Positions 15,023-63,621 of a DNA stretch of 64,000 nucleotides are shown piece by piece. Below the pieces are notes generated by a model. That model saw nothing but the letters and a program-made list of their open reading frames with translations. It was not told the origin of the DNA and ran no database searches. Source of the DNA: a bacterium BMS3Abin14. GTDB taxonomy: Bacteria > BMS3Abin14. Position 1 is the stretch's first letter, and each line of letters begins with the position of its first letter. The stretch spans positions 77,022 through 141,021 of the forward strand of contig BDTG01000019.1 in assembly GCA_002897695.1 (NCBI GenBank). The letters run 5' to 3'. Made by a program: the position numbers and the translations under genes.

Positions 15023-15439
15023 CTACTTCCTGTCCGCTACCTGAACCCTGGTTACCGCTTTTTCCAGGCGCACCTTGGCCTTCTGATAGGCAGGATCATG
15101 TTCACCGGCAGTGATGATCTGTTCAGCCTGTTCCTTGGCTACTTGGGCTCTTGCAAGATTGATATCCGTTGCTTTCTCGGCCGTCTCGGCCAGGACCATA
15201 ACCCTGTCGGAAGCCACTTCCACGTACCCCCAGGATACGGCTACGTGCTCAGTCCGGTCTGCGGTACGATAGTTCAGCTCCCCAACCTTCAGTGCGGTAA
15301 GCAAGGGAACGTGCCCCGGCAGAACCCCGAATTCTCCCTCGATTCCGGGAAGAACCACCTCATCCACCTCTGTAGACACAACAATACGTTCAGGTGTGAC
15401 CACCTCCAGAAACAGTTTGTCTTTACTTGACTCGGCCAT
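15023..15439 (-). CDS. atpC: ATP synthase epsilon subunit
   Basis: F1 central-stalk subunit that couples rotation to catalysis and can inhibit ATP hydrolysis. N-terminal beta-sandwich (LFLEVVTPERIVVSTEVDEV, then GEFGVLPGHVPLLTAL) and C-terminal helical hairpin (about 90-135). 138 residues. Last gene of the atp operon, nine bases after atpD. Confidence 0.96.
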   Translation of the reverse strand: MAESSKDKLFLEVVTPERIVVSTEVDEVVLPGIEGEFGVLPGHVPLLTALKVGELNYRTADRTEHVAVSWGYVEVASDRVMVLAETAEKATDINLARAQVAKEQAEQIITAGEHDPAYQKAKVRLEKAVTRVQVADRK

Positions 15440-15448
15440 GGCGCGGGA

Positions 15449-17800
<2,352 letters not shown>

Positions 17801-17801
<1 letters not shown>

Positions 17802-19318
17802 TAGTCGTAGACGAACTCGTTTTTGAACTCTTCGAGAGCGGCCTTTATCGCAACCAGAAGATTGTCATCGATTTTTCCTGTTTCCTTGACATCTTTGAGA
17901 ATTTCCGGATGGCGGTTTTCCATGAAACTCACCATCTCTCCGGCGTACTTCCCGATAACCTCCACTGGATAACCGTCAAGATACCCGTTTGTCGCAGAAA
18001 AGATGACAAGGACCTGTTTTTCTACCGGCATGGGAACATATTGGTCCTGTTTGAGCACCTCAACAAGACGTTCGCCTCGAGCGAGCTGCGCCTGGGTTGT
18101 TTTGTCAAGGTCGGACCCGAACTGGGCGAATGCCGCCATTTCCCTGTACTGGGCCAATTCCAGGCGCAGCCGGCCTGCAACCTGCCGCATTGCTCTGACC
18201 TGGGCTGCTCCACCCACCCGGGAAACCGAGATGCCAACGTTGATGGCAGGGCGGACTCCCGAGTAGAACAGATCCGATTCCAGGAAGATCTGTCCGTCGG
18301 TGATGGAGATAACGTTTGTGGGGATATATGCCGAGACATCCCCTGCCTGGGTCTCAATTATGGGGAGCGCCGTCAGGGAACCTCCACCGAGATCATCACT
18401 CAACTTGGCGGCCCTCTCCAGCAGCCTGGAGTGAAGGTAGAAAACATCTCCCGGGTATGCCTCCCGTCCCGGCGGCCGCCTGAGGAGAAGGGACATCTGC
18501 CTGTAGGCAACCGCATGTTTGGAAAGATCATCATATATGAGGAGCGCGTGCTGCCCATTGTCCCGGAAATACTCTCCCATGGCGCATCCTGCAAATGGCG
18601 CAATAAACAGAAGCGGCGCCGGCTCGCTCGCGGAGGCGGAAACCACGATGGTATAATCCATAGCCCCGTGCTCATCGAGGACCGCGATAACCCGCGCAAC
18701 CGTGGAGTCCTTCTGCCCGATGGCAACATAGATGCAGACAACAGGGTCGTCAGCGTTTTTCTGGTTGATAATGGTATCAATGGCAATGGCGGTCTTGCCC
18801 GTCTGACGGTCTCCGATGATCAGCTCCCTCTGGCCGCGGCCGATGGGGATCATGGAGTCAACCGGTTTCAGTCCTGTCTGGAGGGGTTCCCTAACCGGCT
18901 GCCTTTTGACAATGCCGGGCGCGATAACCTCAACTAAACGGGTGTTTGTGGTCTCGATGGGCCCTTTCCCGTCTATGGGCTGCCCCAGAGGATTTACAAC
19001 CCTCCCCAGCAGTTCCTCGCCGACAGGCACTTCCACGATCCGGCCGGTGCGCTTGACGACGTCACCCTCTTTGATGAGCTGGTACTCACCAAAAAGAACA
19101 ATACCGACGTTGTCCTCCTCCAGGTTCAGGATCATTCCGAAGACCTCACCGGGCAGCTCCACGAGTTCTCCGGCCATGGCGTTTTCAAGACCATGAACCC
19201 GGGCGATGCCGTCTCCGGTGGACAGGACGATTCCCGTTTCCTTCACATCGATGGATTTTTCGAACCCCTCGATCTGTTTTTTGATTATCTCGGTGATCTC
19301 TTCCGCTTTAATTTGCAT
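17801..19318 (-). CDS. atpA: ATP synthase alpha subunit
   Basis: Non-catalytic nucleotide-binding F1 subunit, 505 residues. Walker [14 protein letters not shown]; the alpha signature [17 protein letters not shown] is present. Begins with an N-terminal helix that contacts the delta subunit. Six bases separate it from atpH. All domains intact. Confidence 0.97.
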
Positions 19319-19323
19319 TCGGA

Positions 19324-19869
19324 CTATCTCCCCTTGCTAAGGGTATCTTTTAACTCCTGTAGCTGATTGCTTATGCTTCCGTCGTAAACCCGGCTTCCAA
19401 CGTAGGCTACCATCCCTCCGAGAATGTTCTCGTCAACTTCAATCTTCAGAATGATCTCCTTGCCCGAGATTTCGGAAAGCGCGTCATGAATCCTTTTCTT
19501 GTCATTATCGCCAAGCGGCGCGGCAACGACCACCCTCGCCCTTATACGATTTTCCCTCAGATCGCAGAGGCGATGGTACGCCTCCGAAATTTCACCGATT
19601 CCGTCGATCCTGTTCTTTTCAAGCAGTACAAACACGGATTTTCTGGCCGTTTCCCCTATAGCGATCTTTTTGAAAATACTGCTCAGGACCTTCTCTTTTG
19701 CGTCAAGGGAAACGGTTGGATCGAAAAAGAGGTTCCCCAGGTCGGGGCTTATGGTAAAGAGGCCCGCGACAACTTTAAGATCCTCCCCGATTTCGACAAC
19801 AAGGCCCTTTTCCGTCGCCAGATCTATTATTGCCTGGGCATAACGCTTTGCGAGAACTTGACCGATCAC
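19324..19869 (-). CDS. atpH: ATP synthase delta subunit
   Basis: Peripheral-stalk subunit that joins F1 to the b/b' dimer. Start chosen at GTG 19869, which overlaps the atpF stop as GTGA and follows GGAGG by ten bases. It gives [18 protein letters not shown], the usual N-terminus, and 181 residues; the ATG at 19899 lacks a ribosome site. The C-terminal signature [19 protein letters not shown] is intact. Confidence 0.95.
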
Positions 19870-20447
19870 TGCTTGGCTGCCTCCAGATTGTTCAGACATT
19901 CGTCGACAAATCTGCTCTGATCATCAGGGGTTACCCTATCCCGTATGATCTCCTCAGCGATGGCCACTGCCGTTTCGGCCGCCTCTTTTCTCAGAATTTC
20001 CTGCGTTTTTTTCAACTCCTGCAGGATGGACTGTTTGGCCTCTTTTTTAAGCCTTTCCACAGCCTCCTCCGCTTCGCCAAGAATCCTCTCCTTCTCCATC
20101 TCGCTTTCCTGCCTGGCGGTCTTGATAAGCGCGTCCATCTCCTGATCCGCCCGCGCAAGCCGCTCCTCCGCCTCTTTCATCTTGATCTCGGCCTGTTGCC
20201 TGGAGGCCTCGGCCTCATTGAGCATCTTGCGGACCGATTCTACGCTTCCTCTGATGCCATCGGCAATCGGTTTGCGGGCAAAGTATATCAGGATCCCCAT
20301 AAGGATGGCGAAGTTCACGAACCGCATGATGAGATCGTAAATCGAACGCCCTCCTCCGCCATCACCACCCGCGGCCAGGGAAACGGCCGGGATCGCCAGG
20401 CCGCAGGCAAGCAGCAGAATGATCCGGACAGATCTTCTGGACATCAC
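19866..20447 (-). CDS. atpF: ATP synthase b subunit
   Basis: Peripheral-stalk subunit. A signal-like hydrophobic N-terminus (about 8-26, ending SLAAGG) is followed by the membrane helix (about 38-57) and a long charged coiled coil to residue 190. The extra N-terminal hydrophobic stretch is usual in delta-proteobacterial AtpF and probably is a cleaved signal. Overlaps b' by four bases and delta by the GTGA junction. Paired with a b' gene, so the stalk is a b/b' heterodimer. Confidence 0.93.
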   Translation of the reverse strand: MMSRRSVRIILLLACGLAIPAVSLAAGGDGGGGRSIYDLIMRFVNFAILMGILIYFARKPIADGIRGSVESVRKMLNEAEASRQQAEIKMKEAEERLARADQEMDALIKTARQESEMEKERILGEAEEAVERLKKEAKQSILQELKKTQEILRKEAAETAVAIAEEIIRDRVTPDDQSRFVDECLNNLEAAKQ

Positions 20448-20881
20448 TCACCGCCCCCCATGGACCGGCCCATCAGCTTTGAGGCGACCCTGCCGGCCAG
20501 GCTCTCCACCTCCGCCTTCAGTGTTTTCCTGGATTCATCGGCCTGAATGGACAATGCCTTTCGAGCGGCATCGAGTTCCTTCGCATTGTCCGCCTTGGTA
20601 TCCTGAAGAATCTTGCGGAATCCACCGAGCGCCTCGCTTCGGGATGTCGCCCTTATGGACATGGATTCCTGCTTGGCGGAAAAAAGTTTAGACTCATATT
20701 CAGTGATCTTTTCATCCGCCAGTCCGCCTAACCGCTCCTTGATCTCCGCCGCGTCCTTCACAAGCTTCTCGCGTTCATCCAGCACCCTGAGGATTGGCTT
20801 AAACAGCAAAAAATTGAGAACAACCATCAGAATCAGGAAGTTGGCCAGCTGGACAAGTAAGGTAAAGTTGACGCTAATCAA
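20444..20881 (-). CDS. atpF': ATP synthase b' subunit
   Basis: Second b-type stalk subunit, 145 residues: a membrane helix at the N-terminus (about 5-27), then LFKPILRVLDEREK and a coiled coil. The TTG start follows GCGGAGG. It is the first gene downstream of the 330-bp gap that holds a repeat element and a candidate promoter. It may therefore begin a separate transcript for the stalk and F1 genes. Confidence 0.92.
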   Translation of the reverse strand: MISVNFTLLVQLANFLILMVVLNFLLFKPILRVLDEREKLVKDAAEIKERLGGLADEKITEYESKLFSAKQESMSIRATSRSEALGGFRKILQDTKADNAKELDAARKALSIQADESRKTLKAEVESLAGRVASKLMGRSMGGGE

Positions 20882-20938
20882 GTGTGCCTCCGCTTACCCG
20901 GACAAAAAAACACGCAATATTCGGTTAAAGAATGCATA

Positions 20939-20967
20939 AAAGTAATAAAACGGTCTTTACCTGTCAA
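20939..20967 (-). promoter_or_regulatory. Candidate sigma-70 promoter before the b'-F1 gene block
   Basis: On the minus strand a perfect -35 TTGACA (20962-20967) is followed after 17 bp by TACTTT (20939-20944), a weak -10 (3 of 6). It lies about 60 bp upstream of the b' start, in the gap left between atpE and b'. Plausible because repeat element A separates the two halves of the operon; not proven. Confidence 0.35.
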
Positions 20968-21035
20968 CAGTTTTTCCCTGTCAGGCTGCCACAGGGCTTT
21001 ATCCCTGTGACAAGGTCGTCAAAAACCATCAACCT

Positions 21036-21218
21036 TTGATGGCTTCGCAAAAAGTCATCAAAGTGCCCGGGGAGGGCGCCCAAATCAATAGCTTGCAACG
21101 CAAGTTGTTGATTTGCAAGGAAAGTAAAAATGACATTTTCCACTTTCCGTTGAGCAAAAAGCCACGAACCTGCCTGTGCGTTGCACGCAGACAGGTGGAC
21201 TTTTTGCGACCATATCAA
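21036..21218 (+). repeat. Structured dispersed repeat, copy A (four hairpins)
   Basis: 183-bp element bounded by imperfect inverted ends TTGATnnnnTCGCAAAAAGTC (inner 12 bp TCGCAAAAAGTC identical at 21045-21056 and, inverted, 21198-21209). It can fold into four successive hairpins: left end (TTTGATGGCTT with AAGTCATCAAA, one G-T); CAAATCAA 21081-21088 with TTGATTTG 21108-21115; GGAAAGT 21119-21125 with ACTTTCC 21142-21148; and a right-end stem GCAAAAAGCCAC with GTGGACTTTTTGC (one bulge). Related copies are at 63289-63445 and 25897-25987. Its right end supplies the TGA stop of atpE. No ORF inside; it looks like a non-autonomous mobile repeat. Confidence 0.8.
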
Positions 21219-21472
21219 CCATTGACCACGAAGATAAGGAGAAGCGCCACCACGAGGGCGTAGATCCCGGTGGACTCGGAAACAGCCTGTCCCACCAGCA
21301 TGGTTCGTGTAAGCAGTCCGGCATCGGCGGGATTTTTGCCGATAGCCTCGCAGGCCTTGCCGGCCGCAAAACCCTCGCCGATTCCCGGGCCAATGGCCCC
21401 GAACCCCATGGAGATCCCCGCGCCGAGCAGTGCCGCTGCCCTGATCAATTCCGTCCCGGTAATTCCTGTCAT
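21215..21472 (-). CDS. atpE: ATP synthase c subunit (two-carboxylate, sodium-type pattern)
   Basis: Rotor-ring proteolipid, 85 residues, one helical hairpin. Ion-site residues: GPGIGEG in helix 1 (Glu33) and [11 protein letters not shown] in helix 2 (Glu66, Ser67, Thr68). The polar loop is KNP instead of the usual RQP. The Glu33/Glu66-Ser pattern matches the two-carboxylate sodium-binding rings known from Fusobacterium; coupling to sodium is an inference. The ribosome site is strong (AGGAGG, six bases). It follows the fused c gene by 44 bases. The stop codon lies in the terminal TTGAT of repeat copy A. Confidence 0.95.
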
Positions 21473-21516
21473 TTTGTTCCTCCTGAAATGATTTAGTTAC
21501 AAGAAAACTTCGGCGA

Positions 21517-22260
21517 TTAGCTCAATATTATGAGGACAAAAGCCACAACCATGGCGTAGATGCTTGTCGATTGCGCCACCGCCTGGCCCAGAAGCATGAC
21601 CCTGGTCAGCAGACCTACCGAATTGATCGGGTCCTTGTGGCTTCTGACTCCAATAATGGCCGCCTCCGCCGCTATCCCGGATCCGATGGATGGCCCTACA
21701 GCTCCGAATCCCATACAGAGTCCCGCTGAAAGCATTGCCACAAAATCAACGATGCCGGCATCGGGCCTTGCCGGAAGAAAGAGCAGCAGAAATGAAACAA
21801 GCAATGCGAAAATTACCGGGGTCTGGGTTACCGCCTGGCCTATGAGCATCATGGTGGTGAAGCTGCTCCTGAGATATGGCTGCCGGGCGATAGCTTCGCA
21901 GGCCCGGGCAGCGGGAAACCCCGCCCCCACACCGGAGGCCAAGGACGCCGCCCCGATTGAGAGGCCGGCCCCCAGGGCGCTGAAACCGTCAATAAGGGGA
22001 ACTCCGTGATAGTTCCCGAAAAGGAGCAGGATGGCGACCACCAACGCGAAGATACCCGAGGTTTCCGTCACTGCCTGGCCGACGAGCATGATGCGAAACA
22101 GGTCGAAAGAAGTCCCCGGCTGTCTGGAGATACCCAGGGTTGCGCTTCCGGCAGACAGGCCCTCGCCGATTCCCGGGCCAATGGCACCGAGACCGATTGC
22201 CAGGCCGGCCCCCGCCATTGACAGGGCCTTGACGAGCTCCTCGGTTGCGATTAGATCCAT
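21517..22260 (-). CDS. Fused triple-hairpin ATP synthase c subunit with one ion site
   Basis: 247 residues made of three c-subunit hairpins in tandem, six membrane helices. Hairpin 1 (about 8-82): GPGIGEG (Glu33), loop RQP (46-48), GQAVTETSGIF (Glu66), matching atpE position by position. Hairpin 2 (about 90-162): SGVGAG (Ala113 at the first site), loop RQP, GQAVTQTPVIF (Gln146). Hairpin 3 (about 170-246): GPSIGSG (Ser194), loop RSHKDP, GQAVAQSTSIY (Gln230). Only hairpin 1 keeps the essential carboxylate. Analogous to the duplicated one-site c1 of Acetobacterium woodii, but triplicated. The ribosome site (GAGAGGG, four bases) looks weaker than that of atpE, consistent with a minor ring component. 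Lies between atpB and atpE. Confidence 0.93.
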   Translation of the reverse strand: MDLIATEELVKALSMAGAGLAIGLGAIGPGIGEGLSAGSATLGISRQPGTSFDLFRIMLVGQAVTETSGIFALVVAILLLFGNYHGVPLIDGFSALGAGLSIGAASLASGVGAGFPAARACEAIARQPYLRSSFTTMMLIGQAVTQTPVIFALLVSFLLLFLPARPDAGIVDFVAMLSAGLCMGFGAVGPSIGSGIAAEAAIIGVRSHKDPINSVGLLTRVMLLGQAVAQSTSIYAMVVAFVLIILS

Positions 22261-22340
22261 AAACCCTCTCTTGCGGCCTCTTTAAAACCTTTTCGGACCA
22301 GGCCAATCCTGATTTGATGGAACTGTAAAATAGTCATTAA

Positions 22341-23012
22341 CTATTTAGTCGCCACGGCTATATACGTGATCGTGAGCATGGTAAAAACGAAAGCCTGGAT
22401 TGTGCCGACAAAAAGCCCGAAAAATGCGTTAAGAAACGGCGGCAAAACCAGATTATACACCATGTGGGATACCACGATGATAATGATGGCTCCCCCCATG
22501 ATATTGCCGAACAGCCGGAAGGAGATGGATATGACCTTGGCCAGCTCTCCGATAACATTCAGCGGAGCCATCACAAAGAAGGGTTCAGCGTATTCCTTGA
22601 GGTATTTCCCTATCCCTTTTTCCCTGACAGCCGCGAAATGGGTGAGGACAAAACCCATGATCCCGAGGCTCAGCGGTGTGTTCAGGTCTCTTGTGGGCTC
22701 TTCAAGCCCCGGGATGATCCCCAGCCAGTTGCACACGACCAGGAAAACAAACATGGTTGCGATTAGTGGCAGGTAGCCTCGGCTGGTAGTCTCGAGGGTG
22801 TCCCTGACAAGCCTGTCCATGGCGGAAACATAAAGCTCCACTATCCGCTGGAGGGGGCCCGGGATCTGCTTGAGGCCCCTTGTCGCGAGAAATGCCACGA
22901 TTACCAGAAAGGCCATAACGAGCCACGTATTAAACAGCGTGGCCGTGTTGACAGTCAGGTGGAGGCCGAACAGATCAAACGAATATCTGGGGATGTAGGT
23001 CAGATCTGCCAT
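22341..23012 (-). CDS. atpB: ATP synthase a subunit
   Basis: Stator channel subunit of Fo, 223 residues with about five to six membrane helices. The essential Arg is R166 in ISFRLFGNIMGG; the C-terminal helix IQAFVFTMLTITYIAVA is intact. It starts seven bases after the atpI-like gene and precedes the two c genes. Because neighbouring c hairpins differ in ion-site chemistry, this stator must pass empty and occupied sites past the same Arg. Confidence 0.95.
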   Translation of the reverse strand: MADLTYIPRYSFDLFGLHLTVNTATLFNTWLVMAFLVIVAFLATRGLKQIPGPLQRIVELYVSAMDRLVRDTLETTSRGYLPLIATMFVFLVVCNWLGIIPGLEEPTRDLNTPLSLGIMGFVLTHFAAVREKGIGKYLKEYAEPFFVMAPLNVIGELAKVISISFRLFGNIMGGAIIIIVVSHMVYNLVLPPFLNAFFGLFVGTIQAFVFTMLTITYIAVATK

Positions 23013-23019
23013 GTCACCA

Positions 23020-23421
23020 TCATCTTTTATCCATTTCGCCCTTCCGGCCTGTACTTCCGGCTAACTCCCCCGCGATGAGAACTGCCTGGGCAGTGAACAG
23101 CGCGGGTATTGCGGCCCCCAGGGCGATCCCTTTCACTGACGCTGCCACAACGAGGGCCGCCCCGGCTGTTGTCATCCTCAGGGCGTAACGCCCCGCAGCG
23201 GACCGCTGCCCTCCGGACCCCACCTTCACGGCGTGCCGAGGTATATGCCCAGCCATGGCGAGGAAATTTACCAGGCTCGCGGCCCCTCCCAGTGCGGCCC
23301 CCTTGGCCCAGGACATATGGCCCATCAGGACAAAAGCACCAACCGAAAGCAGTATTATGGCGAGGGCCCTGAAAAAAATCTTCCTGACAAATCCGGCGAA
23401 TATCTGAACCACACCGCTCAT
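23020..23421 (-). CDS. ATP synthase I-like membrane protein
   Basis: 133 residues with four hydrophobic segments (about 12-32, 38-58, 84-104, 105-122), at the usual position of atpI as first gene of the atp operon. The overall pattern fits the AtpI family, which assists c-ring assembly. Sequence similarity within this family is low, so the call rests partly on position. Of interest here because ring assembly must handle two kinds of c subunit. Confidence 0.7.
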   Translation of the reverse strand: MSGVVQIFAGFVRKIFFRALAIILLSVGAFVLMGHMSWAKGAALGGAASLVNFLAMAGHIPRHAVKVGSGGQRSAAGRYALRMTTAGAALVVAASVKGIALGAAIPALFTAQAVLIAGELAGSTGRKGEMDKR

Positions 23422-25896: not shown

Positions 25897-25987
25897 TGAC
25901 AGGATTGCAAAAGGCCCATTCACGGCTTTTGACTCCGCGGAAAGCGCAAAGTGTCATCCTCGCTTTCCTCACAGATCAACAACCTGT
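25897..25987 (-). repeat. Structured dispersed repeat, partial diverged copy C
   Basis: Read on the minus strand, this matches the right half of copies A and B in order: GTTGTTGATCTG, GGAAAGCG (complement of 25961-25968) pairing with CGCTTTCC (25939-25946), GAGTCAAAAGCC, then CTTTTGCAATCCTGTCA as a worn right end. The third-hairpin stem differs from copies A and B (T-A pair replaced by C-G) yet still pairs. The left half is missing or unrecognisable. It contains the stop codon of rsmG. Confidence 0.6.
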
Positions 25988-63219: not shown

Positions 63220-63621
63220 ATGAAATATGTCTATGTCATTCAGAGTATCAACCATGTCAAACAGTACTATGTCGGCCATACACGAAAGTTGATGACTTCG
63301 CAAAAAGTCATCAACGCGTCCCGCATGGGGTGCCCAAATCAATGACGCCCATCGTAAGTCATTGATTTGTAAGGAAAGTGAAAACGACGCTTTTCACTTT
63401 CCGTGGAGCAAAAAGCCTCGAATGAACTTTTTGCGACTCTATCAAATTTGAATCGCTGCTTAAGTCAGCACAATTTTGGTCAATCGCCACATACTTCAAG
63501 ATTTAAGCCTTGGGACCTTTTGGTGGCCTTCAGAATTCCAGATGATAGAAGAGCGTTAGCATTTGAGAAGTATTTGAAATCCGGTTCCGGTCGTGCATTC
63601 GTTAATCGACACTTCAGATAG
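63220..63621 (+). pseudogene. GIY-YIG endonuclease gene interrupted by repeat copy B
   Basis: The N-terminal part reads MKYVYVIQSINHVKQYYVGH then TRKL, the start of a small GIY-YIG nuclease (VYV and YVG at the motif positions). After the repeat, the same frame continues SNLNRCLSQHNFGQSPHTSR, FKPWDLLVAF and ends FEKYLKSGSGRAFVNRHF, the usual end of this family. The insertion keeps the frame (about 150 bp) but brings a TGA at 63343-63345, so the protein is truncated. Joined, the two parts would give a normal protein of about 83 residues. Confidence 0.85.
63289..63445 (+). repeat. Structured dispersed repeat, copy B (four hairpins)
   Basis: 157-bp element, best preserved copy. Ends: TTGATGACTTCGCAAAAAGTC, and inverted TTGATAGAGTCGCAAAAAGT. 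Four hairpins: GTTGATGACTT/AAGTCATCAAC (63288-63298, 63305-63315); CAAATCAATGAC/GTCATTGATTTG (63335-63346, 63358-63369), 12 bp perfect; GGAAAGTGAAAA/TTTTCACTTTCC (63373-63384, 63391-63402), 12 bp perfect; GCAAAAAG/CTTTTTGC (63408-63415, 63427-63434). Inserted in a GIY-YIG gene. No target duplication seen. Confidence 0.85.

What the first reader, a model, noticed from the sequence alone, without database searches (positions are those of the whole stretch)
21517..22260. Triplicated F-type c subunit with a single ion-binding site beside a normal c subunit
Three c-type hairpins are fused in one 247-residue protein. Hairpin 1 has Glu33 and Glu66, exactly aligned with the normal atpE. In hairpins 2 and 3 the essential Glu is Gln (146, 230) and Glu33 is Ala or Ser. 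Hairpin 3 has also lost the F1-contacting RQP loop. In Acetobacterium woodii a duplicated one-site c1 joins single c subunits in a hybrid ring, lowering the ion/ATP ratio. Here the fused unit would remove two sites per copy. All motifs around the lost carboxylates (GQAV, GxG runs) are conserved, arguing against decay. I know of no described F-type triple-hairpin subunit with one site; novelty is not verified.
Basis: partly seen in the sequence, partly recalled or inferred. Interest (0 to 1): 0.9.

Follow-up and report, generated by a model that had tools for sequence, protein, structure and literature searches.

The report
Rotor subunit with empty ion seats
The gene encodes three fused copies of the rotor part of an ATP-making enzyme, of which two have lost the residue that carries ions; related genes with three to six fused, mostly ion-less copies occur next to the normal rotor gene in several bacterial phyla, so some natural rotary ATP synthases appear to be built with inert stretches in their rotor.

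Summary
Window 21517-22260 (-) encodes a 247-aa, three-hairpin F-type c subunit with Glu66 in hairpin 1 and Gln146/Gln230 in hairpins 2 and 3. It lies directly upstream of a normal c gene, inside a complete atp operon (15023-23421).

It is not an artefact or decay. All 12 genomes held of this small phylum carry it, and dN/dS is 0.09 (0.05-0.13 per hairpin). Homologues with 3-6 hairpins (EQQQ, EQQQE, EQQQQQ, EQE, ETQ) lie beside a normal c in Desulfobacterota and Planctomycetota. Hairpins cluster by position. 79 of 85 middle hairpins carry Gln at the site; the ring-packing glycines are kept.

(1) Outside the window's genus, hairpin 1 has lost its Glu too (SQQ): a zero-site triple. The conserved feature is the inert hairpins. 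(2) The genome has one F1 but two a/c sets, one hybrid and Na+-type, one H+-like. Desulfonema magnum, Desulfarculaceae and Desulfobacterales show the same.

Best explanation: an inert-arc hybrid rotor of the Acetobacterium woodii kind, lowering ions per ATP, on an F1 possibly shared with a second Fo. Ring incorporation is inferred. It is a new variant of a known kind; I could not read the 2015 hybrid-rotor survey.

The parts
21517..22260 (-). Fused triple-hairpin F-type c subunit (247 aa), sites E/Q/Q
   Evidence: Three PF00137 matches; AlphaFold2 model pLDDT 90.4 with three hairpins; conserved in 12 of 12 genomes of the phylum held; dN/dS 0.09 against the sister species
22009..22260 (-). Hairpin 1 (residues 1-84): Glu33 and Glu66 kept, Tyr70 equivalent is Phe
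22063..22065 (-). Codon of Glu66, the only ion-carrying carboxylate of the fused protein; Ser in the seven full-length family members outside the genus
21766..22008 (-). Hairpin 2 (residues 85-165): Gln146 (QTP motif), Ala113; dN/dS 0.046
21520..21765 (-). Hairpin 3 (residues 166-247): Gln230, Ser194; loop changed with a 3-residue insertion; dN/dS 0.098
21215..21472 (-). Normal single-hairpin c subunit with a complete two-carboxylate Na+-type site (Glu33, Glu66, then Ser-Thr, Tyr); start preceded by a perfect AGGAGG
   Evidence: of 41 such neighbours in these loci all 41 keep Glu65 and Ser66, and 40 each keep Glu32, Thr67 and Tyr70
22341..23012 (-). a subunit (Fo stator) of the hybrid, Na+-type Fo
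   Evidence: PF00119; groups with a subunits linked to multi-hairpin c, apart from the second Fo's a
23020..23421 (-). AtpI (c-ring assembly factor family)
   Evidence: PF03899
20444..20881 (-). b subunit
   Evidence: PF00430
19866..20447 (-). b' subunit; b and b' are the only pair in the genome
   Evidence: PF00430
19324..19899 (-). delta subunit, the only one in the genome
   Evidence: PF00213
17801..19318 (-). alpha subunit
   Evidence: PF00006 search of the own genome
16944..17801 (-). gamma subunit, the only one in the genome
   Evidence: PF00231
15449..16888 (-). beta subunit
15023..15439 (-). epsilon subunit
   Evidence: ORF and operon position; epsilon orthologue in the sister-genome operon

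Best explanation
The gene makes an inert-arc rotor segment. The fused three-hairpin c protein is built into the c-ring of this F-type ATP synthase together with many copies of the single c subunit made from the next gene (stronger ribosome site). Its hairpins pack like ordinary c hairpins, but two of three (all three in most relatives) carry a neutral Gln or Ser instead of the ion-carrying Glu. They pass the a subunit without taking up an ion, so one turn (three ATP) moves fewer ions than the ring has hairpins: (N-2)/3 ions per ATP with one such protein in an N-hairpin ring, (N-3)/3 in the zero-site relatives. This raises the ion-motive force that the enzyme can build or needs. The Fo is probably Na+-driven (two-carboxylate Na+ motif in c; an Rnf complex in the genome). 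The same single F1 probably also serves a second, H+-like Fo whose a and c genes lie elsewhere in the genome. Shown: gene structure, conservation, purifying selection, site loss, operon, one F1 with two a/c sets. Inferred: presence in the ring, copy number, ion specificity, lowered ion/ATP ratio, sharing of F1.
For: Three c hairpins with a confident fold (pLDDT 90.4) whose best solved match by sequence and fold is A. woodii c1 of a hybrid ring (4bem_J). Found in 12 of 12 genomes of the phylum held, next to a normal c wherever the contig is long enough to show it. dN/dS 0.090 overall and 0.127/0.046/0.098 for hairpins 1/2/3, so the site-less hairpins are under selection. Across the loci examined, 79/85 middle and 29/45 last hairpins have Gln exactly at the Glu position, while the TM1 glycines 20, 25, 27, 29 and 31 stay at 0.73-1.00 in these two classes; the single neighbour c keeps the full site in almost all of 41 loci. 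Hairpins cluster by position (first/middle/last) across phyla, 7 changes against about 51 in shuffles, so the fused form is old. The a subunits of the second Fo form one group apart from all a subunits next to multi-hairpin c (100 support). One gamma, one delta and one alpha/beta set but two a subunits in the own genome; one gamma, one delta and two a in complete relatives, including Desulfonema magnum. In Desulfonema magnum and Desulfocarbo the multi-hairpin cassette is an Fo only (atpI-a-cN-c-b-b'), with F1 elsewhere. RnfD family in 15 of 15 such genomes.
Against: No expression, protein or structural data. In Bacillus PS3 a single Glu-to-Gln change in one of ten fused c hairpins abolished synthesis, pumping and coupled hydrolysis (Mitome 2004, as reported in PMC8809890), so runs of 2-5 Gln hairpins should be harmful in an ordinary Fo. 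Yet A. woodii tolerates one. Copy number per ring is unknown; with zero-site versions a ring with several copies would be crippled. Ion specificity rests on motif only. Metagenome bins can lack genes, though single-contig genomes show the same counts.
Confidence: 0.68

Rival explanations
1. The fused protein is a brake or regulator. When it enters a ring, the charge-free arc stops ion-coupled rotation past the a subunit, giving a dormant Fo; its dose sets how many complexes are active.
For: One Gln hairpin kills the PS3 enzyme (PMC8809890); loss of all sites in most of the family; a second Fo with an intact c exists in the same genomes.
Against: It sits inside the complete operon in the window's phylum, so it would be made constantly. 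A. woodii c1 with one Gln hairpin works in an active ring (literature knowledge). Many members keep one or two Glu sites, which a pure brake would not need.
Confidence: 0.15
2. The fused protein is a c-ring assembly template or membrane scaffold that is not part of the final rotor.
For: Operon position just before c and near AtpI; the zero-site form would need no ion binding.
Against: Ring-packing glycines are kept in the site-less hairpins, and the ion site is specifically Gln rather than random. The nearest homologue of known structure is a genuine ring member.
Confidence: 0.1
3. It is a decaying tandem duplication or an assembly artefact with no function.
For: Loss of carboxylates is what decay would begin with.
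Against: dN/dS 0.05-0.13; 12 of 12 genomes; the same positional hairpins across several phyla.
Confidence: 0.02
4. About the second point only: the two a/c sets do not share F1. The second set (C46) is a relic or belongs to another machine, and only the window operon makes an ATP synthase.
For: b and b' occur once in the window's genome, and the two a proteins are very different (95.8 bits to the window's a, against 452.5 for its true orthologue).
Against: The second a and c are under purifying selection (dN/dS 0.09 and 0.11), and the arrangement recurs in complete genomes of other classes, where the second set is an a/c pair apart from the F1 operon.
Confidence: 0.3

Closest known systems
Acetobacterium woodii c1 subunit in the F/V-hybrid Na+ c-ring (PDB 4bem), also Clostridium aceticum c1
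   Same: Fused c hairpins, Glu in hairpin 1 and Gln in hairpin 2, encoded beside normal Na+-type c in the F-type operon of an Rnf-bearing organism
   Different: Three to six hairpins instead of two, runs of two to five adjacent inert hairpins, zero-site versions; different phyla; one F1 with a second a/c set
V/A-type K subunits with two or more hairpins (eukaryotic V-ATPase; Methanocaldococcus triplication; Methanopyrus 13 hairpins)
   Same: Hairpin fusion, often with loss of ion ligands (PMC2359735)
   Different: Those belong to V/A-type motors; here an F-type operon with a separate full c subunit, and sequence closest to F-type models
ProAD 'non-catalytic' c/K subunits (PMC11738941)
   Same: The survey records 20 F/N-type ATPases whose c lacks Glu/Asp and says multi-hairpin c may or may not hold a site in each hairpin
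   Different: No family, gene pairing, hairpin pattern or shared F1 is described in the text read; supplements were not readable
Fusobacterium nucleatum two-carboxylate Na+ c-ring (3zk1)
   Same: Glu32 + Glu65 + Ser66 + Thr67 + Tyr70 site of the single c here
   Different: Homomeric ring

Membership tests
F-type c subunit (PF00137 in an F-type operon) | c hairpin domain over the curated cut-off | tested here: met
   133.5 bits against 24, three stretches
F-type c subunit (PF00137 in an F-type operon) | encoded with F-type a, b, delta, alpha, gamma, beta, epsilon | tested here: met
   complete operon 15023-23421
Acetobacterium-type hybrid rotor | fused c with at least one hairpin lacking the carboxylate | tested here: met
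   Gln146 and Gln230
Acetobacterium-type hybrid rotor | separate normal c with a Na+ motif in the same operon | tested here: met
   21215-21472
Acetobacterium-type hybrid rotor | c1 has exactly two hairpins (V-type-like) | tested here: not met
   three hairpins here, 3-6 in homologues
Acetobacterium-type hybrid rotor | both c proteins in one ring (9:1) | not testable with these tools
   needs purified ring
Acetobacterium-type hybrid rotor | anaerobe with Rnf-type Na+ pump | tested here: inconclusive
   RnfD family present in 15 of 15 genomes; ion pumped and lifestyle not tested
V/A-type K subunit | belongs to a V/A operon with subunit I | tested here: not met
   F-type operon; V-type K models score below cut-off
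N-ATPase | order beta-epsilon-X-X-a-c-b-alpha-gamma, delta absent or fused with b | tested here: not met
   order atpI-a-c3-c-b-b'-delta-alpha-gamma-beta-epsilon; definition

The most novel reading that the evidence does not exclude
One F1 motor is shared by two exchangeable membrane rotors in the same cell: an H+-like Fo with a uniform c-ring and a Na+ Fo with a hybrid ring holding an arc of two to five adjacent charge-free hairpins. This would give the cell two fuels and two gear ratios with one ATP-making head, and would require a way for an uncharged arc to pass the a subunit.
Probability: 0.35. Interest if true: 0.92.

Novelty: new variant of a known kind. Interest (0 to 1): 0.76.

Why it matters
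Textbook F-type rotors have an ion site on every c hairpin, and an engineered single Glu-to-Gln change stops the PS3 enzyme. Here evolution has kept fused rotor subunits with 2-5 neighbouring site-less hairpins, and even fully site-less ones, in several phyla. This makes directly testable how a c-ring passes an uncharged arc, how low the ion/ATP ratio can go at the thermodynamic limit, and whether one F1 can serve two membrane rotors. It may also explain some c subunits filed as 'non-catalytic' in a genome-wide survey.

Tried and rejected
Assembly error or pseudogene: rejected. V-type K or N-ATPase membership: rejected on operon order and scores. 'Exactly one site is the point': rejected, because relatives have zero, one or two. 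Literature searches for multi-hairpin F-type c found only general remarks: ProAD, and a 2026 mBio paper noting two to four atpE copies in Desulfatiglandales, with no mention of fused hairpins in the passages read. Matthies 2014 is not held and Brandt and Mueller 2015 turned up only as a citation, so novelty against the 2015 survey (from memory: twelve anaerobes with one Fo- and one Vo-type c gene) is unverified. The promoter/terminator scan gave nothing clearly above chance. A viral fold search was started by way of control and not collected, as it bears on nothing here. The hairpin tree has few columns, so only the positional grouping is used.

Full report
OBSERVATION. The 247-aa ORF at 21517-22260 (-) and the 85-aa c gene at 21215-21472 (-) are real. 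Pfam finds three ATP-synt_C units in the first and one in the second. The genes lie in a complete F-type operon, atpI-a-c3-c-b-b'-delta-alpha-gamma-beta-epsilon, 23421 down to 15023. An AlphaFold2 model from ten related sequences is confident (mean pLDDT 90.4) and shows three hairpins. Its best match among solved structures, by sequence and by fold, is the two-hairpin c1 subunit of the Acetobacterium woodii hybrid ring, 4bem_J, itself Glu in hairpin 1 and Gln in hairpin 2.

CONSERVATION. Only 12 genomes of the window's phylum are held, all of one family, and all 12 carry the fused gene; two copies are cut by contig ends and one holds Ns. Against the sister species (91% protein identity) dN/dS is 0.090 for the fused gene, against 0.075 for c and 0.061 for a. 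By hairpin it is 0.127, 0.046 and 0.098. The hairpins without a site are therefore maintained by selection. The c gene has a perfect AGGAGG before its start and the fused gene only a weaker AGAGAGGG, in line with c being made in excess (inference).

THE SITE IS NOT THE POINT. In the seven full-length relatives outside the window's genus hairpin 1 has lost its Glu as well (GQAATSTPP, GQAAASTPP or GQGATSTPP; pattern S-Q-Q), while the neighbouring c stays intact. Such a protein cannot carry an ion, so it can act only as part of a mixed rotor or as something else. A scan of 84,980 named genomes and a hairpin count found fused c genes next to a normal c in Desulfarculaceae (five hairpins, E-Q-Q-Q-E), Desulfobacterales and other Deltaproteobacteria (four, E-Q-Q-Q; five, E-Q-Q-Q-Q; six, E-Q-Q-Q-Q-Q), Desulfonema magnum (E-Q-E), Planctomycetota (E-T-Q, E-T-E) and Lentisphaerae (S-Q-E). 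Omnitrophota and one other genome have a separate single-hairpin c without the Glu beside a normal c (L095, L077, L021). Over all these loci 79 of 85 middle hairpins and 29 of 45 last hairpins have Gln exactly at the Glu position, middle ones with a Q-T-P signature. The glycines that pack the inner ring are largely kept, and 41 of 41 neighbouring single c subunits keep the Glu. In a hairpin tree the units group by position (first, middle, last) with 7 changes against about 51 in shuffles. A three-part fusion therefore seems old, and the longer ones arose by copying the middle unit. The tree rests on 77 columns and only this coarse grouping is used.

ONE F1, TWO Fo SETS. The own genome (100% complete) has one gamma, one delta and one alpha/beta pair, all in the window, and one b/b' pair, but two a subunits. 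The second a, with atpI and a c of the GLAMIESLVIY type, lies on contig C46 near nuoABC (genes named from sequence by eye) and is under purifying selection (dN/dS 0.09 for a, 0.11 for c). The same count, one gamma and two a, holds in other family members, including a 2.8-Mb single-contig genome, and in Desulfonema magnum (complete), Desulfocarbo, Dethiosulfatarculus and four Desulfobacterales. A few genomes differ (for instance G005 with one a found, G011, G065 and G070 with more than one gamma). In Desulfonema magnum and Desulfocarbo the fused-c cassette is an Fo only, atpI-a-cN-c-b-b', followed by unrelated genes, with F1 at a distant place. The a subunits of the two sets fall in separate groups (second set 100 support), each holding both the window's phylum and Desulfobacterota, so both sets are old. 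I infer, but cannot show, that one F1 serves both.

ION. The single c has the two-carboxylate Na+ motif described for Fusobacterium nucleatum (PMC3692424). All 15 genomes tested encode an RnfD/NqrB-family protein, against 4 of 14 control genomes, and in the own genome it lies among rnf-like genes (by eye). Na+ coupling is likely, not proven.

HOW IT MOST LIKELY WORKS. Neutral hairpins occupy rotor positions but carry no ion, so ions per ATP equal sites/3 and not hairpins/3. This is the reading given for A. woodii and Clostridium aceticum c1 (PMC7911925), extended here to runs of 2-5 adjacent empty positions. The main difficulty is that one Glu-to-Gln hairpin out of ten abolished activity in Bacillus PS3 (reported in PMC8809890). 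Either these Fo stators are adapted to pass a charge-free arc or the fused subunit is a brake; I prefer the first (0.68) to the second (0.15).

NOVELTY. Hybrid rotors, and multi-hairpin c with lost sites in general, are known. A 2026 paper notes two to four atpE copies in Desulfatiglandales and cites the 2015 survey. I found no description of F-type fused c with three to six hairpins, of zero-site fused c under selection, or of one F1 with two Fo sets; the NCBIfam library offers only single-hairpin F-type models for these proteins. The 2015 survey itself could not be read. I therefore file it as a new variant of a known kind.

Noticed in passing
L116:5601-7077 (G000:C46 about 85600-87076): Second Fo set (atpI, a, c with signal-like leader) beside hemL-like and nuoABC-like genes and multihaem cytochromes, without any F1 genes.
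   Followed up: yes
L095:4812-5072, L077:896-1153, L121:8621-8887: Single-hairpin c subunits with Ser in place of the essential Glu, encoded together with a normal c in Omnitrophota and another genome: an unfused counterpart of the same idea.
   Followed up: partly
L119:6365-7315: Four-hairpin fused c with sites E/Q/E/D in a 1.2-Mb genome where the gene directly follows a.
   Followed up: partly
G037: Five a-subunit genes in one genome with a single gamma; three of them begin about 110 bases from a contig start, so they may be repeats.
   Followed up: no
window 21036-21168, similar stretches at 63289-63422 and 25924-25986: Dispersed intergenic repeat (81% and 76% identity) in the 333-bp gap between c and b; related pieces occur in the sister genome.
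   Followed up: partly
L183 (G002:C1:2173008-2173187): A third c-like place in a complete relative (also in G003 and G004); possibly a V/A-type K subunit, not examined.
   Followed up: no
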